From positions 88,807,606 to 88,871,605 of the forward strand of contig NC_091132.1 in NCBI RefSeq assembly GCF_040183065.1: a stretch of DNA of 64,000 nucleotides, read 5' to 3'. A program made the position numbers and the translations under genes. The notes under the pieces are model-generated. The model ran no database searches. It was not told the origin of the DNA and saw nothing but the letters and a program-made list of their open reading frames with translations. Within the stretch, counting starts at the first letter, position 1. Each line of letters opens with the position of its first letter. Positions 22,232 through 61,360 of the stretch are shown here, piece by piece. Origin of the DNA: Periplaneta americana (Eukaryota > Arthropoda > Insecta > Blattodea > Blattidae).

Positions 22232-23328
22232 ATGATAGTGAAATTTGTAAAGACGTGTCAGCATCAATGGCTATTTGCACCCATATCTCTAGCTTTTTTT
22301 GTGGTGAAATTAAATTGTTGTTGCATAACTAAAACACACACTGACTAAAAACGTTGACACATTAAAAAACCAAGCACACTAATATTGGACAAACAAAGTG
22401 ACTTCTTATATATAATAACATTAAAACGAACATGTAGTAGTCCCAAGACACTGTGAGACAATCATAAAATAATAAAACAAATACTGCCACACAAAATGTG
22501 GGTGTGGCAGTGTTACATAACAATCAGTAAAATCTCGGATGAATAAGGTCCGAATAGTAAAGTGTAATCTTCATCTTACGATGTTTGGTGATGTATACAC
22601 GTCCGCTGATGTGACATATTAATGAATTTAAATACTATTATAGTCACAATCATGCCATGGTATGAAAGAAAAATTTCACAACCTTGAGCGGGAATGGAAC
22701 CTGCGACTTCCTTCCTTTCATACTGGCGACTCTGTTATAGAGTACTGTCCATAGCGTCTGATCTAGTCAGCACTGCTTATGGCTTGAAAGAAACTTTACA
22801 AATGTAATCTTCATCTTACGATGTTTGGTGACGTATACACGTCCGTTGATGTGACATATTAATGAATTTAAATACTATTATAGTCACAATCATGCCATGG
22901 TATGAAAGAAAAATTTCACAACTTCGAGCGGGAATCGAACCTGCGACTTCCAAGCCTTTGGCGTGAGACGAACTCGATAGCTCAGTGGTAGAGCGCCTGA
23001 CCGGAGAACAGGAAGTCGCAGGTTCGATTCCCGCTCGAGGTTGTGAAATTTTTCTTTCATACCATGGCATGATTGTGACTATAATAGTATTTAAATTCAG
23101 TAAAGTGTAATTAAAAGAAAGGTAATTAAAATAACCTCCAGATGTAAAGAGTCTGGAGAATAAATAACAATGGGCTAAAAGAACACTAAAACTTAGATCA
23201 CCTTGTCGAGTTCCATGTTACGTAAATACCTTAAACACTCCATTAACACAGTTAAAATCATTGTCAAGAGTGTCATGTAGTGTTGGACATATTGCATACT
23301 GACATCGAGGCCATTCATATTTGCGACA
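22232..23328 (-). mobile_element. 5'-truncated I-type LINE 3' end, split by a SINE composite
   Basis: The 3' end box (CAAATAGCCATTGATGCTG on the minus strand) starts at about 22232. The 3' UTR resumes after 23111 with sequence matching the UTR of the full-length LINE at 13140-13260 (a CCAGACTCTTTACATC-like stretch) and the start of the coding end. The copy is truncated near 23328. Confidence 0.7.
22569..23098. mobile_element. Composite of three SINE copies: two direct, one inverted
   Basis: A unit of roughly 135-145 bp is present at about 22569-22712 and again at about 22806-22951. A third copy lies inverted at 23011-23099. The second and third form a near-perfect inverted repeat with 89-base arms (22863-22951 and 23011-23099) around a 59-base loop. 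The loop plus right arm reads as a tRNA-like head: GCTC-AGTGGTA-GAGC D arm, anticodon-like arm, B box GGTTCGATTCC. The whole is bracketed by AGTAAAGTGTAAT at 22556-22568 and 23099-23111, suggesting insertion as a unit into the LINE 3' UTR. Confidence 0.75.
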
Positions 23329-32306: not shown

Positions 32307-32652
32307 AATAATTTCAAGGGCAAAATTGTTCTGGGGCCGGGTATCGATCCCGGGACCTCTAGTTGAATGTACCAGCGCTCTGCCAACTGAGCTACCCAGG
32401 AACTCCACCCAACACCATCTCAACTTTTCCCTTTATATCCACACAACTCGTGTGGGCTGACGAAATGCCAGAGACCCACATCGAGTGCACACAATCTCTG
32501 TGTGACTTGGAATTGTGGTTTTTCTGTTAACGTACACAGTGATGTGTCGGGTGGAGTTCCCAGGTAGCTCAGTTGGCAGAGCGCTGGTACGTTCAACCAG
32601 AGGTTTCGGGATTGATACCCGGCCCCGGAACAATTTTTCCCTTGAAATTATT
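32307..32652. repeat. Large palindrome whose two arms are tRNA-like sequences
   Basis: Arms 32307-32415 and 32545-32652 are about 109-base inverted copies with scattered mismatches, around about 130 bases of unrelated spacer. Each arm contains a tRNA-like fold: D arm GCTC-AGTTGGCA-GAGC, anticodon stem CTGGT/ACCAG with loop ACGTTCA (GTT at positions 34-36, Asn-like) and a T arm CCGGG-ATCGATA-CCCGG in the left copy. The acceptor stem is only about 5 of 7 pairs, position 33 is C, and the B box is GGATCGATACC or GGATTGATACC, so these are not likely to be functional tRNA genes. Confidence 0.75.
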
Positions 32653-41111: not shown

Positions 41112-41379
41112 CCTGTCCACGCCTGTGGAGTAACGGTTAGCACGTCTAGCCGCGAAACCAGGTGGCCCGGGTTCGATTCTCGGTCGGGGCAAGTTACCTG
41201 GTTGAGGTTTTTTCCGGGGGTTTTCCCTCAACCCAATACGAGCAAATGCTGGGTAACTTACGGTGTTGGACCCCGGACTCATTTCACCGGCATTATCATC
41301 TTCATCTCATTCAGACGCTAAATAACCAAAGCTGTTGATAAAGCGTCGTAAAATAACTTAATAAAATAAATAAAAAAAA
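41112..41379 (+). mobile_element. tRNA-derived SINE, Pol III type, full length
   Basis: Flanked by GATACTTT (41104-41111, 41380-41387). A-box area GTGGAGTAACGGTTAGCAC and B box GGTTCGATTCT are followed by a body with GAGGTTTTTTCCGGGGGTTT and CAGACGCTAAATAACC, and an A-rich tail. I recall this body as typical of cockroach genomes. A second copy, split by other elements, is at 58384-59980. Confidence 0.9.
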
Positions 41380-45839: not shown

Positions 45840-45919
45840 TTATATATATATATATATATATATATACGTTCTTTTTCTGTTGTTGTAATATATATATTAC
45901 AACAACAGAAAAAGAACGT
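45840..45919. repeat. (TA)n tract joined to a 54-bp perfect palindrome
   Basis: A TA run (45840-45866) leads into 45866-45919, whose two 27-base halves are exact reverse complements (outer part ACGTTCTTTTTCTGTTGTTG, centre ATATATATAT). No spacer. Confidence 0.92.
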
Positions 45920-57000: not shown

Positions 57001-57774
57001 TGACCAAGCATCCTAGCTAGTAGAGTCGGGCAAACAGCCTCTTACTCCCGCTCGTCTCGTAGGCGAGACTGGCTGGCCGATAACGCCAGTTCCGAGAATC
57101 GTATTCTCGAGATTGGCACTCTCGGGAACGAGGAATACCGGGTCCCGGCCTGTTATCGCACGGCCGACTTATCGTTACGAAATGCGTACACTGACTGCCG
57201 GCTTATTTGCCGCTCATCACTGAAATTCGTGACTCTTTCTGAAAAATATTAATGTTCATGAAGTAATTTAAGAAGGCACACTATTTTAATGAACTACTTA
57301 TTGCCTTTCTGGAGAAGCAAAATAATGCAGCACTTTCAGTCGTTACCTAATCCTAAGCTAGTCTAAAACAATAACAAGTTATGGTTGGAGCTATGATATA
57401 CTTTCTCGCTATCAGCATTTCGTTGACATTGCATATTTAATGATTCGATAGTGTTTTGTATACGCTATAGTAATGGATAACACACGTCTGTATTATTATA
57501 TTGCGCGTTCACATCTGGATGTTTCGTTGTTATGCAACGGCATCTTCATCAGCATGGGTAATTATTGTGCTGTGTAAGGACGAAATAAAATAATTAATAC
57601 TTATTTATATTATTATAAAGGACCAAAGACTCTGACAAAAGATATTTTTGTTTCCCAACTGATAAAATGCTGCATGTGAAATGCAAACACTTTTGCAAGA
57701 GGAAGGACAGAATTACGAAACAGAGTAGATCCTTTCACAAATTGATCATAATTACTTACAAATGCATTTTAAGG

Positions 57775-58320
57775 AACCCGGAGGTTCATTGCCGCTCTCA
57801 CATAAGCCCGCCATCGGTCTCTATCCTGAGCAAGATTAATTCAGTCTCTACCATCATATCCATTTTTATATTATCTTCCCATCTACGTCTCTGCCTCTCC
57901 AAACGTCCTTTCCCTCCTGCCATCCAACTAACACTCTATATCCATTTCTGGATTCGCCCATACATGCTAGGTGTTCTGCCCATTTCAAACCTCTGAATTT
58001 AATATTCCTAATTATGTCAGGTGATAGTACAATGCGTGCAGCTCTGCGTTGTGCAACTTCCTCCATTCTCCATCCCTCTTAGCCCCAAATATCTTCCTAA
58101 GAATCTTATTCTCGAACACCCTTAACCTCTGTTCCTCAAAGTGAGAGTCCAAATTTCACAACCATACAGAACAACCGGTAATGTAACTGTTTTATAAATT
58201 CTAACTTTCAAGTTTTTTGAGAGCAGGCTGGGTGACAAAAGCTTCTCAACCGAATAATAACAGGCATTTCCCCTCATATTTATTCTGCGTTTCCTCCAGA
58301 GTGTCATTTATATTTGCTTT
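57775..58320 (-). pseudogene. 5'-truncated LINE, RT C-terminal end
   Basis: Minus strand: NACYYSVEKLLSPSLLSKNL then LPVVLYGCEIWTLTLR (58122-58280), PDIIRNIKFRGLKWAEHLAC (57970-58030; normally RWAGHVAR) and NLAQDRDRWRAYVRAAMN (57783-57836). This is the common RT C-terminus of a LINE family I recall as abundant in cockroaches. Frameshifts near 58120 and 57866. Lies within the hAT. Confidence 0.7.
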
Positions 58321-58346
58321 ATCATAACAACAGAGAATAAAAGAGG

Positions 58347-58347
<1 letters not shown>

Positions 58348-58383
<36 letters not shown>
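58348..58383. repeat. (TTA)n microsatellite
   Basis: Eleven or so TTA units at the tail side of the SINE. Confidence 0.85.
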
Positions 58384-58384
<1 letters not shown>

Positions 58385-58582
58385 ATTAGTTACTTTACAA
58401 CGCTTTATCAACTGCTATAGCTATCTAGCGTCTGAATGAGATGATAATGCCAGCGAAATGAGTCCAGGGTCCAGCGCCGAAAGTTACCCAGCATTTGCTC
58501 TCAATGGGTTGAGGCGAGAAACCTCAGCCAGGTAAAGGCTGGTTCACAATAAACCGGGAACGGAAACGACAACGAGAAATAA

Positions 58583-59736
58583 TCTATACTAATAATAAAT
58601 CTGTAAGCGAAATTTTTCTGGTAATTTTCGCTTTTCCAAAAATAATTGGTGTTAACATGTATAATTAATCATCCTCAAACCGAAAATAGCTTTTTTGAAA
58701 TTTTTGTATGTCTGTCTGTCTGTCTGGGTATTTGTTACCTTTTCACGCGATAATGGCTGAACGGATTTCGATGAAAATTGGAATATAAATTAAGTTCGTT
58801 GTAACTTAGATTTTAGGCTATATGGCATTCAAAATACTTTATTTAAAAGGTGGGTTATAAGGGGGCCTGAATTAAATAAACCGAAATATCTCTCTTATTA
58901 TTGATTTTTGTGGGAAAATGTTACATAACAAAAGTTTCTTTAAAAATGATTTCCGATAAGTTTTATTCCAGGCAAAATTTTGATAGGACTGATATTTAAG
59001 TCTGTCTGTCTGTTTGTTACCTTTTCACGCGATAATGGCTGAACGGATTTTGATGAAAATTGGAATATAAATTAAGTTCATTGTAACTTAGATTTTAGCC
59101 CATATAGCATTCAAAATACTTTATTTAAAAGGGGGGTTATAAGTGGGCCTGAATTAAATAAACCGAAATATCTCGCTTATTATTGATTTTTGTGAAAAAT
59201 GTTACATAACAGAAGGTTCTTCAAAAATGATTGTCGATAAGTTTTATTCCAGGCAAAATTTTGATAGGTCTGATATTTAAGGATATAAAAGAGTTTTAAA
59301 ATAACAATACAATACATTTTCACTGCCGCCTCAGATTATAGCGTCGTTGTTCCGTAACTGCTATGTGCAAACTATTAAATTTTTTAGTAGGAAGAAAAAC
59401 AAATTTATTCGTTCTATGGCAGTAGTGCATAGGAGATCGTGAATTCTTACATTTTTACACAATCAACTCTATTAATTTGGAGTGATTTATTAAAGGATGC
59501 ATTCAAGACTAATTTAGAGAAATGTTAAACGAGTTTTATTTGCACCAAATGAATGGTCTCTGGACCAAAATGATAGCATTTTAATTATTTAAATACAATT
59601 TAAATTAAGTAACATATTAAACGATTTATTATTCTATCAAACACGAATGTTTCCTGGACCCAATGTTCTATTTTAATTATGTAATTACTTTATATTTATT
59701 TCTAATAAGTGCAGCGGAGCGCACGGGTACAACTAG
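58583..59736 (+). mobile_element. Helitron, non-autonomous (1154 bp)
   Basis: It starts TCTATACTAATAATAAATCT and ends AGCGGAGCGCACGGGTACAA then CTAG, followed by T, the usual TC...CTRR/T borders with a short GC-rich hairpin (GTGC...GCAC) just before the end. Insertion is between A and T with no TSD, as known for rolling-circle Helitrons. The inner sequence holds two copies of a 280-bp unit. No Rep/helicase gene. Confidence 0.85.
58711..59280. repeat. Tandem duplication of about 285 bp inside the Helitron
   Basis: Units 58711-58999 and 59000-59280 both begin with a TCTG run and TTTGTTACCTTTTCACGCG, and end CTGATATTTAA. They differ at scattered sites. Confidence 0.88.
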
Positions 59737-59976
59737 TGTTAAAATAAATGTATTTAAATGTGAACATTCACAATTAACGAGAAGATTGCCGGAGCCCGGA
59801 AACGGGAACGTGAAAGTTAATTGTGAATGCTCACATTTAAATGTATTTATTTTAACAATATTTCCGTTATCGTTTCCGTTCTCGGTTTATTGTGAACCAG
59901 TCTTAACTTGTCCCAACCAAGATTCGAACCGGAAGCCGATCGTTTCACAGTCAGGTGTGCCAACCGTTACTCTACA

Positions 59977-59979
59977 GCG

Positions 59980-60011
<32 letters not shown>

Positions 60012-60060
60012 CATCATTATATCATTATTATTATTAGTATTACTGTTATCATCATCATTA
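59977..60060. repeat. Imperfect (ATT)n/(ATC)n microsatellite
   Basis: Interrupted ATT, AGT and ATC triplets adjoining the SINE head. Confidence 0.8.
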
Positions 60061-60334
60061 TCGTAATCATTAGGATGATTAAGATTATGATTATCAGGAT
60101 TATTATGATGGTTATTATTTATTACTGTCTTGTAAGTTATCATTAGGTACAAGTATTAGAAATCTGATTAATTCTTAATTTGTTATTCTCGTTCCTATAA
60201 CATAGGATAATTATTGTAAATCATATAGGCCTATATAATTTTATATTGTAACATGGCTAGAATACAATAATGATTGTTCTGTAACAATAATTTATAACGT
60301 GCACACCAATAGAAAGTGTAGTTTTCTATAGTAT

Positions 60335-60524
60335 AGGCTGGTTCACAATAAACCGAGAACGGAAACGGCAACGAGAACTAGAACGGAAATATTTTTAAAA
60401 TAAATGTATTTAAAGGTAAGCATCCACAATTAACTATTCTGAATGCTCACATTTAAATACTGTACATTTATTTTAACATTATTTCCGTTCTCGTTTCCGT
60501 TCCCGGTTTATTGTGAACCAGCTT
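60335..60524. mobile_element. Second copy of the AGGCTGGTTCAC MITE
   Basis: A nearly palindromic 190-bp element with the same ends as 58536-59903 (AGGCTGGTTCACAATAAACC; right end inverted AAGCTGGTTCAC) and no Helitron. It serves as an 'empty' reference for the Helitron site. TSD unclear. Confidence 0.78.
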
Positions 60525-61360
60525 TTAATATTTTCATGTTTCATATCATTGTGTTACAAACAATTTTTTTATTTAGTTGCTATAAAAGATAGCCTAATTA
60601 CTATAAAGTGTAAACCATCTTGGACTATATAGCCTCATTTTCAACTACCTTTATTAAAATACCAATTAATACTATCCGTACAATAACGAGTTTTCATGCG
60701 TTGAAGGGTTCCGTACAAATTTTACGGAACAAACGTTTGAGTCATGAGTCCTGCGCTAACAGGTTAACTCGCCGTTATTCGAGAACCAGTAAAAATTTTG
60801 AGTGGCCATCACTTTTAAAAGTAATTTCCATCCTTTCTCAACATTTCTCTCGCTTTGACCCCCCATCTAACGTGAAAAACAAAAAAGTTTTCAGCCTGCA
60901 AAGGTGAAGTTGCAAATGTCTATTCTGAACACATCAATCTCCATCGAAGTTAATTTTTTTTTCTCACTTTCCAAAAAATATTTTCAGTTCGATTTTTTTC
61001 CTATGTTTTCCTTAGACATTGAGCTATCAATCCAAAAAATTACAGCGCGATTGATCAAGTATTATAGGAGCTACGACGTGATATATATTTAAAGAACCGG
61101 GAAATGTATAAGCCAATGCTTCCTATAGGAGCGCGGCCCGAGCGATATCGCTTGCTTATCAGTACTACAGTCCCGTCTAGACCTCCGAGACTGTCGGGAG
61201 TGATCTAGTATCGGTAATCTCGGGACCAAGAGAATCTCGTGTTCTCTATCAATGAGTCATTTGGCTACATTCGGTACGCGCGCACTAAGCGAGACTGTGG
61301 AGATTACGCAACCGAGAACGGGCGATAATATGAGGCAGTCTGCCCGACTCTACTAGCTAG

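What the first reader, a model, noticed from the sequence alone, without database searches (positions are those of the whole stretch)
57021..61352. Four-deep nest: hAT > SINE > TAA-type MITE > Helitron
Each boundary is independently marked: hAT by an 8-bp TSD (CTAGCTAG), SINE by its rejoined tRNA-like body, MITE by TAA on both sides, Helitron by TC...CTAG/T ends. A sister MITE without the Helitron (60335-60524) lies 430 bp away and acts as an empty site. The order of insertion is therefore fixed: hAT, SINE, MITE, Helitron. All lie within one P4HA intron.
Basis: partly seen in the sequence, partly recalled or inferred. Interest (0 to 1): 0.75.

Follow-up and report, generated by a model that had tools for sequence, protein, structure and literature searches.

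The report
Jumping gene carrying nested jumping genes
A cut-and-paste transposon picked up a SINE, a LINE-like fragment, two small DNA transposons and a Helitron over time, kept jumping with them on board, and landed in this gene's intron as one finished package, so the nest records the transposon family's history and not that of this intron.

Summary
The nest is real at the stated coordinates and its inner junctions are exact. MITE1 sits in a SINE with a TAA duplication; an intact SINE in the same window shows the empty site. The Helitron sits in MITE1 at A|T without duplication.

The genome changes the meaning. The 4.1-4.5 kb element is repetitive: of 19 copies read at both ends (window included), 17 have exact, mutually different 8-bp duplications; median divergence from the majority sequence is 0.46% (left part) and 0.72% (right part). 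So the finished nest jumped as a unit and entered this P4HA intron in one event. More diverged copies preserve stages: hAT+SINE only (2 loci); everything but the Helitron (7 of 8 empty-site loci read); and the full composite (126 exact inner junctions; at least one is an unrelated Helitron). In the window copy the sister MITE is flipped between its inverted repeats (1 flipped against 96 unflipped exact matches). No autonomous partner was linked, and no pre-SINE copy was seen.

The parts
57013..57020 (.). left 8-bp target-site duplication CTAGCTAG (palindromic)
57021..61352 (+). non-autonomous composite hAT-type element (4332 bp here; 4083-4470 bp in 18 of 19 paired copies, window included)
   Evidence: TIRs; genome copies
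57021..57041 (+). left terminal inverted repeat
57756..58319 (-). LINE-like fragment (broken ORF resembling, from recall, the C-terminal part of a non-LTR reverse transcriptase), flanked by ATCATAATTAC / ATCATAACAAC (9 of 11); absent from stage-A copies
   Evidence: translation; flanks; absence
58348..58383 (-). (TTA)12 tract, tail of the SINE
58385..59979 (-). tRNA-type SINE, interrupted by MITE1; head 59907-59979, core and tail 58385-58532
58533..58535 (.). left TAA duplication of MITE1
58536..59903 (+). MITE1 (214 bp when the Helitron is left out), TAA-type
58583..59736 (+). non-autonomous Helitron, A|TC...CTAG|T, inserted in the 5' arm of MITE1
58714..59281 (+). tandem duplication of a ~282-bp unit inside the Helitron (93%)
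   Evidence: single unit in a C10 copy
59904..59906 (.). right TAA duplication of MITE1
60335..60524 (-). MITE2 (sister MITE), inverted here relative to the other composite copies read
61332..61352 (-). right terminal inverted repeat
61353..61360 (.). right 8-bp target-site duplication CTAGCTAG
41115..41379 (+). uninterrupted copy of the same SINE family, flanked by GATACTTTCCT / GATACTTTTCT; local empty-site control for MITE1

Best explanation
This is a non-autonomous hAT-type transposon that gathered other transposons as passengers and kept being moved by a transposase supplied in trans. Shown: ends with 8-bp duplications; copies at three stages, hAT+SINE, then with LINE-like fragment, MITE1 and MITE2 (order among these three unresolved), then with the Helitron inside MITE1; movement as a unit both without and with the Helitron; low divergence among full copies. 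Shown for this locus: the complete composite lies in a P4HA intron at a duplicated CTAGCTAG; MITE2 is flipped and 60 bp present in the majority near 57270 are missing. Inferred: the transposase comes from an autonomous hAT with matching ends; copy number rose by ordinary cut-and-paste coupled to replication or gap repair; the expansion is recent; the MITE2 flip arose by exchange between its inverted arms; the passengers are carried and not used.
For: Right end (253 bp), left end (230 bp) and MITE2 each give 40 scored places at 98-100% identity in the window's own genome, window included; 29 left-right pairs of those places lie 2-5 kb apart on the same strand. 19 copies were read at both ends: 17 exact 8-bp duplications, all 17 different, 1 with one mismatch, 1 not matching. 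One complete copy (C3, 4409 bp) holds every passenger in the same order, MITE2 being in the opposite sense. Median divergence from the majority: 0.46% left, 0.72% right (per copy). Helitron-in-MITE1 junction: 126 exact places, reversed-pattern control 0; of the 100 listed, 54 are tied to composite parts by position, and of 8 sampled from the other 46, 7 lie in the SINE-MITE1 context and 1 (L095) does not. Helitron-empty junction: 89 places, control 0; 7 of 8 fetched are the composite without the Helitron; 2 of 3 checked at both ends have exact 8-bp duplications. Two loci hold hAT+SINE with no LINE-like fragment, MITE1, MITE2 or Helitron. Target bias: T at position 2 in 12 of 17, A at position 7 in 10 of 17.
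Against: No transposase was found in the element and no autonomous partner was linked to these ends, so hAT rests on ends and duplications. Stage A rests on two loci, and in neither was the left terminal repeat found. No pre-SINE copy was seen among 40 scored, so 'hAT before SINE' rests on nesting. The Helitron's middle was read in only three composite copies (window, L072, L081). L050/L023 (1 of 19) and L080 (1 of 3) have no matching duplication and may be recombinants. L033 (right part, 7.2% from the majority) was not examined. Of the 126 junction places, one sampled place is an unrelated Helitron, so 126 overstates the composites somewhat.
Confidence: 0.93

Rival explanations
1. In situ history: the hAT landed in this P4HA intron and SINE, MITE and Helitron then inserted here one after another.
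For: Nesting and junctions are exact.
Against: The same inner junction occurs at 126 places, 7 of 8 sampled otherwise untied ones in the same SINE-MITE1 context, and the same contents sit between hAT ends with different 8-bp duplications elsewhere. Independent repetition at identical bases is not credible.
Confidence: 0.01
2. The copies spread by segmental duplication or as a satellite-like unit, not by hAT transposition.
For: Copies are nearly identical, about 4 kb long and no transposase was found in them.
Against: 17 of 19 copies have exact, mutually different 8-bp duplications immediately at the terminal repeats; 2 of 3 Helitron-free copies read at both ends do too.
Confidence: 0.02
3. The element belongs to another superfamily with 8-bp duplications (for example P), not hAT.
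For: P elements also use 8-bp sites (passage in PMC3878927). No transposase was linked.
Against: T2/A7 bias in 17 duplications fits the NTNNNNAN stated for hAT in PMC3878927; the TAGAG start fits the hAT end consensus (recalled). hAT dimerisation domains are abundant in this genome (150 scored of 31016 candidates).
Confidence: 0.08
4. The Helitron-free copies are excision or deletion products of the full composite, not ancestors.
For: Deletions do occur: a 2613-bp copy lost everything between MITE1's 5' arm and MITE2. The 89 empty junctions are exact by construction of the pattern, so imprecise products would have been missed.
Against: An exact restoration at 89 places, 7 of 8 fetched in the composite, is not expected of deletions. 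By part these 7 are 93-100% identical to the full C3 copy (89.5-94.2% over long alignments with gaps), whereas full copies lie a median 0.46-0.72% from their majority sequence; the two measures are not the same.
Confidence: 0.04

Closest known systems
Non-autonomous hAT elements (Ds-like, hAT MITEs)
   Same: Short terminal inverted repeats, 8-bp duplications, no transposase found, presumably mobilised in trans
   Different: Body consists largely of other transposon classes acquired stepwise, with intermediate stages preserved in one genome
Tol2 of medaka with its internal Angel-like inverted repeat (recalled; one search gave listings only, nothing read)
   Same: A hAT element carrying a MITE-like passenger that moves with it
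   Different: Here a LINE-like fragment, a SINE, two MITEs and a Helitron are carried by an element without transposase, with the inner junction at 126 exact places, most but not all of them composites
Non-autonomous insect Helitrons such as Hel-2 (PMC4344730, passages read)
   Same: 5'-TC, 3'-CTAG, hairpin near the 3' end, insertion between A and T without duplication
   Different: No sequence relation to Hel-2 was tested; the hairpin here is weak
Cockroach and termite tRNA SINEs (Sbg1-9, Talua-d; PMC9191728, abstract and passages read)
   Same: A and B boxes each at 10 of 11 consensus positions; the uninterrupted copy starts 11 bp before the A box, as that paper reports for its SINEs
   Different: Sequences of those families were not available for comparison, so family identity is untested
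Nest-order reconstruction from interrupted repeats (REANNOTATE, PMC2672092, passages read)
   Same: Uses containment to order insertions
   Different: Containment alone gives order within a lineage, not order at a locus; here staged copies show the difference

Membership tests
hAT superfamily | 8-bp target-site duplication | tested here: met
   17 of 19 paired copies exact (window included), 17 distinct sequences
hAT superfamily | target preference nTnnnnAn | tested here: met
   T2 in 12 of 17 (binomial 0.001), A7 in 10 of 17 (0.02), both in 6, neither in 1; a bias, not a strict rule
hAT superfamily | short terminal inverted repeats | tested here: met
   21 bp, 19 of 21 identical
hAT superfamily | hAT transposase in the element or a partner with the same ends | tested here: inconclusive
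   no Pfam hit for 7 ORF pieces of the element, but the 37-residue P4HA exon piece in the same call also gave none, so short pieces are a weak test; PF05699 is abundant in the genome but not linked to these ends
Helitron | 5'-TC and 3'-CTRR, insertion at A|T without duplication | tested here: met
   two free copies with A|TC...CTAG|T
Helitron | 3' subterminal hairpin | tested here: inconclusive
   6-bp stem with one bulge, ending 8 nt before CTAG, -4.2 kcal/mol, z -0.96, 33 of 200 shuffles fold as well
Helitron | Rep/helicase protein of an autonomous partner | not tested
   no partner search made
PIF/Harbinger-type MITE | 3-bp TAA/TTA duplication | tested here: met
   MITE1; Helitron-free copies L077-L080 show TAA on both sides. 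MITE2: left TAT, right TTA, not clear
PIF/Harbinger-type MITE | shared ends with an autonomous Harbinger | not tested
   no such search made
tRNA-derived SINE | A and B boxes, tail, target-site duplication | tested here: met
   boxes 10/11 each; 11-bp duplication (10/11) on the window's other copy. Against: ARAGORN at default finds no tRNA in either head, and the interrupted copy has no readable duplication
non-LTR LINE | reverse transcriptase domain | tested here: inconclusive
   no Pfam hit on two ORF pieces of 70 and 61 residues; assigned from recalled C-terminal motifs in the translation, so called LINE-like only

The most novel reading that the evidence does not exclude
The passengers are not neutral: gaining the Helitron (or its duplicated 282-bp unit, or the MITE arms) made the hAT a better substrate or helped it escape silencing, so that each gain was followed by an expansion of that version. 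The composite would then be a vehicle by which immobile SINE and LINE-like fragments are multiplied by a DNA transposase.
Probability: 0.08. Interest if true: 0.7.

Novelty: new variant of a known kind. Interest (0 to 1): 0.5.

Why it matters
Nested transposons are commonly used to order insertions. This case shows, with staged copies from one genome, that such an order can belong to a mobile family and not to the locus: the whole nest can be a moving unit. It also shows that a non-autonomous hAT tolerated repeated cargo gain, from an older form of roughly 2.3 kb (one copy, left end not found) to about 4.4 kb, and still multiplied, thereby copying SINE, LINE-like and Helitron sequence by a route these elements do not normally use.

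Tried and rejected
Rejected: stepwise insertion in the P4HA intron; segmental duplication; a 2- or 4-bp duplication for the outer element, possible from the window copy alone because CTAGCTAG is palindromic but excluded by the other copies. Rejected: the 2613-bp C13 copy as an ancestral stage; it joins MITE1's 5' arm to MITE2 and lacks the SINE head, so it is a deletion.

Led nowhere: Rfam (4 sub-threshold hits); viral-contig scans for five patterns (0 hits each); genome-contig scan for the hAT end (3 bacterial hits; about 7 expected by chance by my own arithmetic, hits not examined); Pfam on 8 peptides (no hits, the P4HA piece included); a pattern for relatives with other sequence behind the same TIR (3 places, not followed); a search for a hAT without the SINE (none of 40 scored places spans the join); PF05699 (150 scored, not linked to these ends). 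Literature searches for a composite hAT with Helitron and SINE, or for hitchhiking nested transposons, listed no such case (8 of 33 papers listed; 1 of 1; listings only). The SINE2 row used the wrong strand and is replaced; the MITE1 join was off by a few bases and is replaced.
Full report
Observation. The described elements are present. The outer element spans 57021-61352 with 21-bp terminal repeats and CTAGCTAG on both sides. The inner Helitron spans 58583-59736 with TC at its 5' end and CTAG at its 3' end; removing it at A|T gives GAAATAATGTTAAAATAAATG, the same letters as the 3' arm of the sister MITE read in reverse complement. Among 625 joins around the Helitron, 58582/59737 ties for first with its one-base-shifted equivalent against that arm; against MITE1's own opposite arm it ties with several; against the sister's 5' arm it ranks 253rd counting from zero. 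MITE1 is flanked by TAA, and an intact SINE of the same family at 41115-41379 supplies the empty site: CCAGGTAACTTG there, CCAGGTAA-MITE-TAACTTG here. P4HA exons on the minus strand at 63649-63437 (E 3e-16) and 43026-42832 (E 2e-17) lie on either side; a weak hit at 55566-55534 (E 4.8) supplies residues that lie between those two and narrows the intron.

A LINE-like fragment lies at about 57756-58319 on the minus strand, with recalled C-terminal motifs of non-LTR reverse transcriptases but no Pfam hit (where the P4HA piece also had none). The sister MITE is inside the hAT. The SINE head is not split, and the SINE's outer edges merge into (TTA)/(ATT) repeats, so it has no readable duplication. 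The outer duplication is a palindrome, so one copy cannot tell 8 bp from a shorter duplication with a longer inverted repeat.

Genome-wide evidence. The window lies in a 3.23-Gb assembly; the repeats look like those of cockroaches, which is recalled and not tested. The right end, the left end and MITE2 each return 40 scored places at 98-100% identity, window included (of 425, 437 and 2139 candidates), and 29 left-right pairs lie 2-5 kb apart on one strand. Of these, 19 were fetched at both ends, including the window: 18 of 4083-4470 bp and one of 2613 bp; 17 have exact 8-bp duplications, all different, one has a single mismatch and one (L050/L023) does not match. Eleven left and eleven right loci had no fetched partner. 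Position 2 is T in 12 of 17 and position 7 is A in 10 of 17, in line with the NTNNNNAN target of hAT transposons (PMC3878927, passage read).

Contents of the copies. In the left-part alignment, 28 of 29 other copies lie 0.1-1.1% from the majority sequence and the 29th, the short C13 copy, 3.3%; in the right part, 27 of 29 lie 0.3-1.7%, with L033 at 7.2% (not examined) and the short copy at 21%. Medians without the short copy and the window are 0.46% and 0.72%. One copy on C3 was completed with a middle piece and holds every passenger in the same order over 4409 bp, MITE2 being in the opposite sense. The exact MITE1-Helitron junction occurs at 126 places. Of the 100 listed, 54 are tied by position to a scored end or an exact unflipped MITE2. 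Eight of the other 46 were sampled: seven lie in the SINE-MITE1 context of the composite, one (L095) is a Helitron in unrelated sequence. The finished composite therefore moved as a unit many times, and its presence in this P4HA intron is one of those events.

Staged copies. The exact Helitron-empty junction occurs at 89 places. Eight were fetched: seven are the composite with the LINE-like fragment, SINE, MITE1 and MITE2 but no Helitron, and one (L074) is a free MITE. By position, 33 of the 89 lie within 1.2 kb of hAT interior sequence, a lower bound since only 40 interior places were scored. Of three such copies whose ends were read, two have exact 8-bp duplications and one (L080) does not. 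A rejoined SINE query led to two hAT loci at 79-91% identity per part (L084, and L082 with L083) with the SINE but without the LINE-like fragment, MITE1, MITE2 and Helitron; the third locus fetched from that search, L085, was a SINE without hAT sequence. Both stage-A loci keep the right terminal repeat, but the left one was not found: in L084 the first 34 positions at the left do not align, and in L082 other sequence, LINE-like by recalled motifs, lies there. They also show the pre-insertion site of the LINE-like fragment and, in L082, of MITE2. No hAT without the SINE was seen among 40 scored places. The order is hAT with SINE, then LINE-like fragment, MITE1 and MITE2 in unknown order, then Helitron.

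Peculiarities of the window copy. MITE2 carries its 12-bp asymmetry marker in the 5' arm here, but in the 3' arm in all 29 other right-end loci fetched. The exact flipped junction occurs once in the genome and the unflipped one 96 times (exact matches only). MITE2 places match the window's MITE2 at 99% in one sense and about 75% in the other; against the composite's direction the 99% sense is the opposite one. An inversion by exchange between the two arms is the simplest cause; an assembly error is not excluded. It also explains why the sister's 3' arm, not its 5' arm, serves as the Helitron's empty site. The window copy further lacks 60 bp present in the majority near 57270. In the C13 copy, MITE1's 5' arm is joined to MITE2 and what lay between is gone. 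The Helitron's 282-bp unit is double in the window and the C3 copy, single in a C10 copy and single in two free Helitrons.

Passenger families. The SINE family is abundant (4310 candidates, 40 scored, all 40 running across the join without the MITE; the rejoined query favours such copies). The Helitron's exact 5' end, with a base other than A two places upstream, occurs 7259 times, and the two free copies looked at begin after A and end in CTAG before T.

Mechanism. Shown: 8-bp duplications, movement as a unit at two stages, and cargo gain. Inferred: trans-mobilisation by an autonomous hAT. Dimer_Tnp_hAT matches are abundant (150 scored of 31016 candidates, some in open frames of over 600 residues), but none was linked to these ends.

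Literature. REANNOTATE (PMC2672092, passages read) states the containment rule for nest order. PMC4344730 (passages) gives the Helitron hallmarks used here. PMC9191728 (abstract and passages) describes cockroach SINEs and box consensuses. PMC11560428 (passages) ties TAA-type MITEs to PIF/Harbinger. Searches listed no report of such a composite (8 of 33 and 1 of 1 papers listed; open library only). Tol2 with an Angel-like inner repeat is recalled as a simpler precedent; one search gave listings only.

Verdict. The nest and its relative order stand; the implied local history does not. The finding becomes a cargo-collecting non-autonomous hAT with preserved intermediate stages: a new variant of a known kind, of moderate interest.

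Noticed in passing
60335-60524: MITE2 is inverted between its own terminal repeats in this copy only, as far as exact matches show (1 flipped junction against 96 unflipped).
   Followed up: yes
L019/L046 (C13 copy, 2613 bp): Composite copy that lost everything between MITE1's 5' arm and MITE2; it has its own 8-bp duplication TAAAGTAG.
   Followed up: partly
58714-59281: The Helitron carries a tandem duplication of a 282-bp unit; one composite copy (C10) and two free Helitrons have a single unit.
   Followed up: partly
22560-23103: A 62-bp perfect inverted repeat and a second of 60 bp, with a tRNA-Ser(gga)-like sequence at 22970-23043; perhaps a tRNA-derived repeat in a large hairpin.
   Followed up: partly
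32307-32652: Long imperfect inverted repeat (74%, about 345 bp) with a 28-bp perfect tRNA-like stretch on both arms.
   Followed up: no
45866-45919: 54-bp perfect palindrome next to an (AT)n tract.
   Followed up: no
34516-34466 and 20920-20891 (minus strand): Two weak hits to the last residues of P4HA (E 0.02 and 0.7, both ending RPCGL), perhaps alternative or duplicated C-terminal exons.
   Followed up: no
L082 (C14:87075600-87079000): The old hAT+SINE copy has a further tRNA-type repeat inserted next to the later MITE2 site, flanked by a repeat of at least 9 bp (ACGAATACA).
   Followed up: partly
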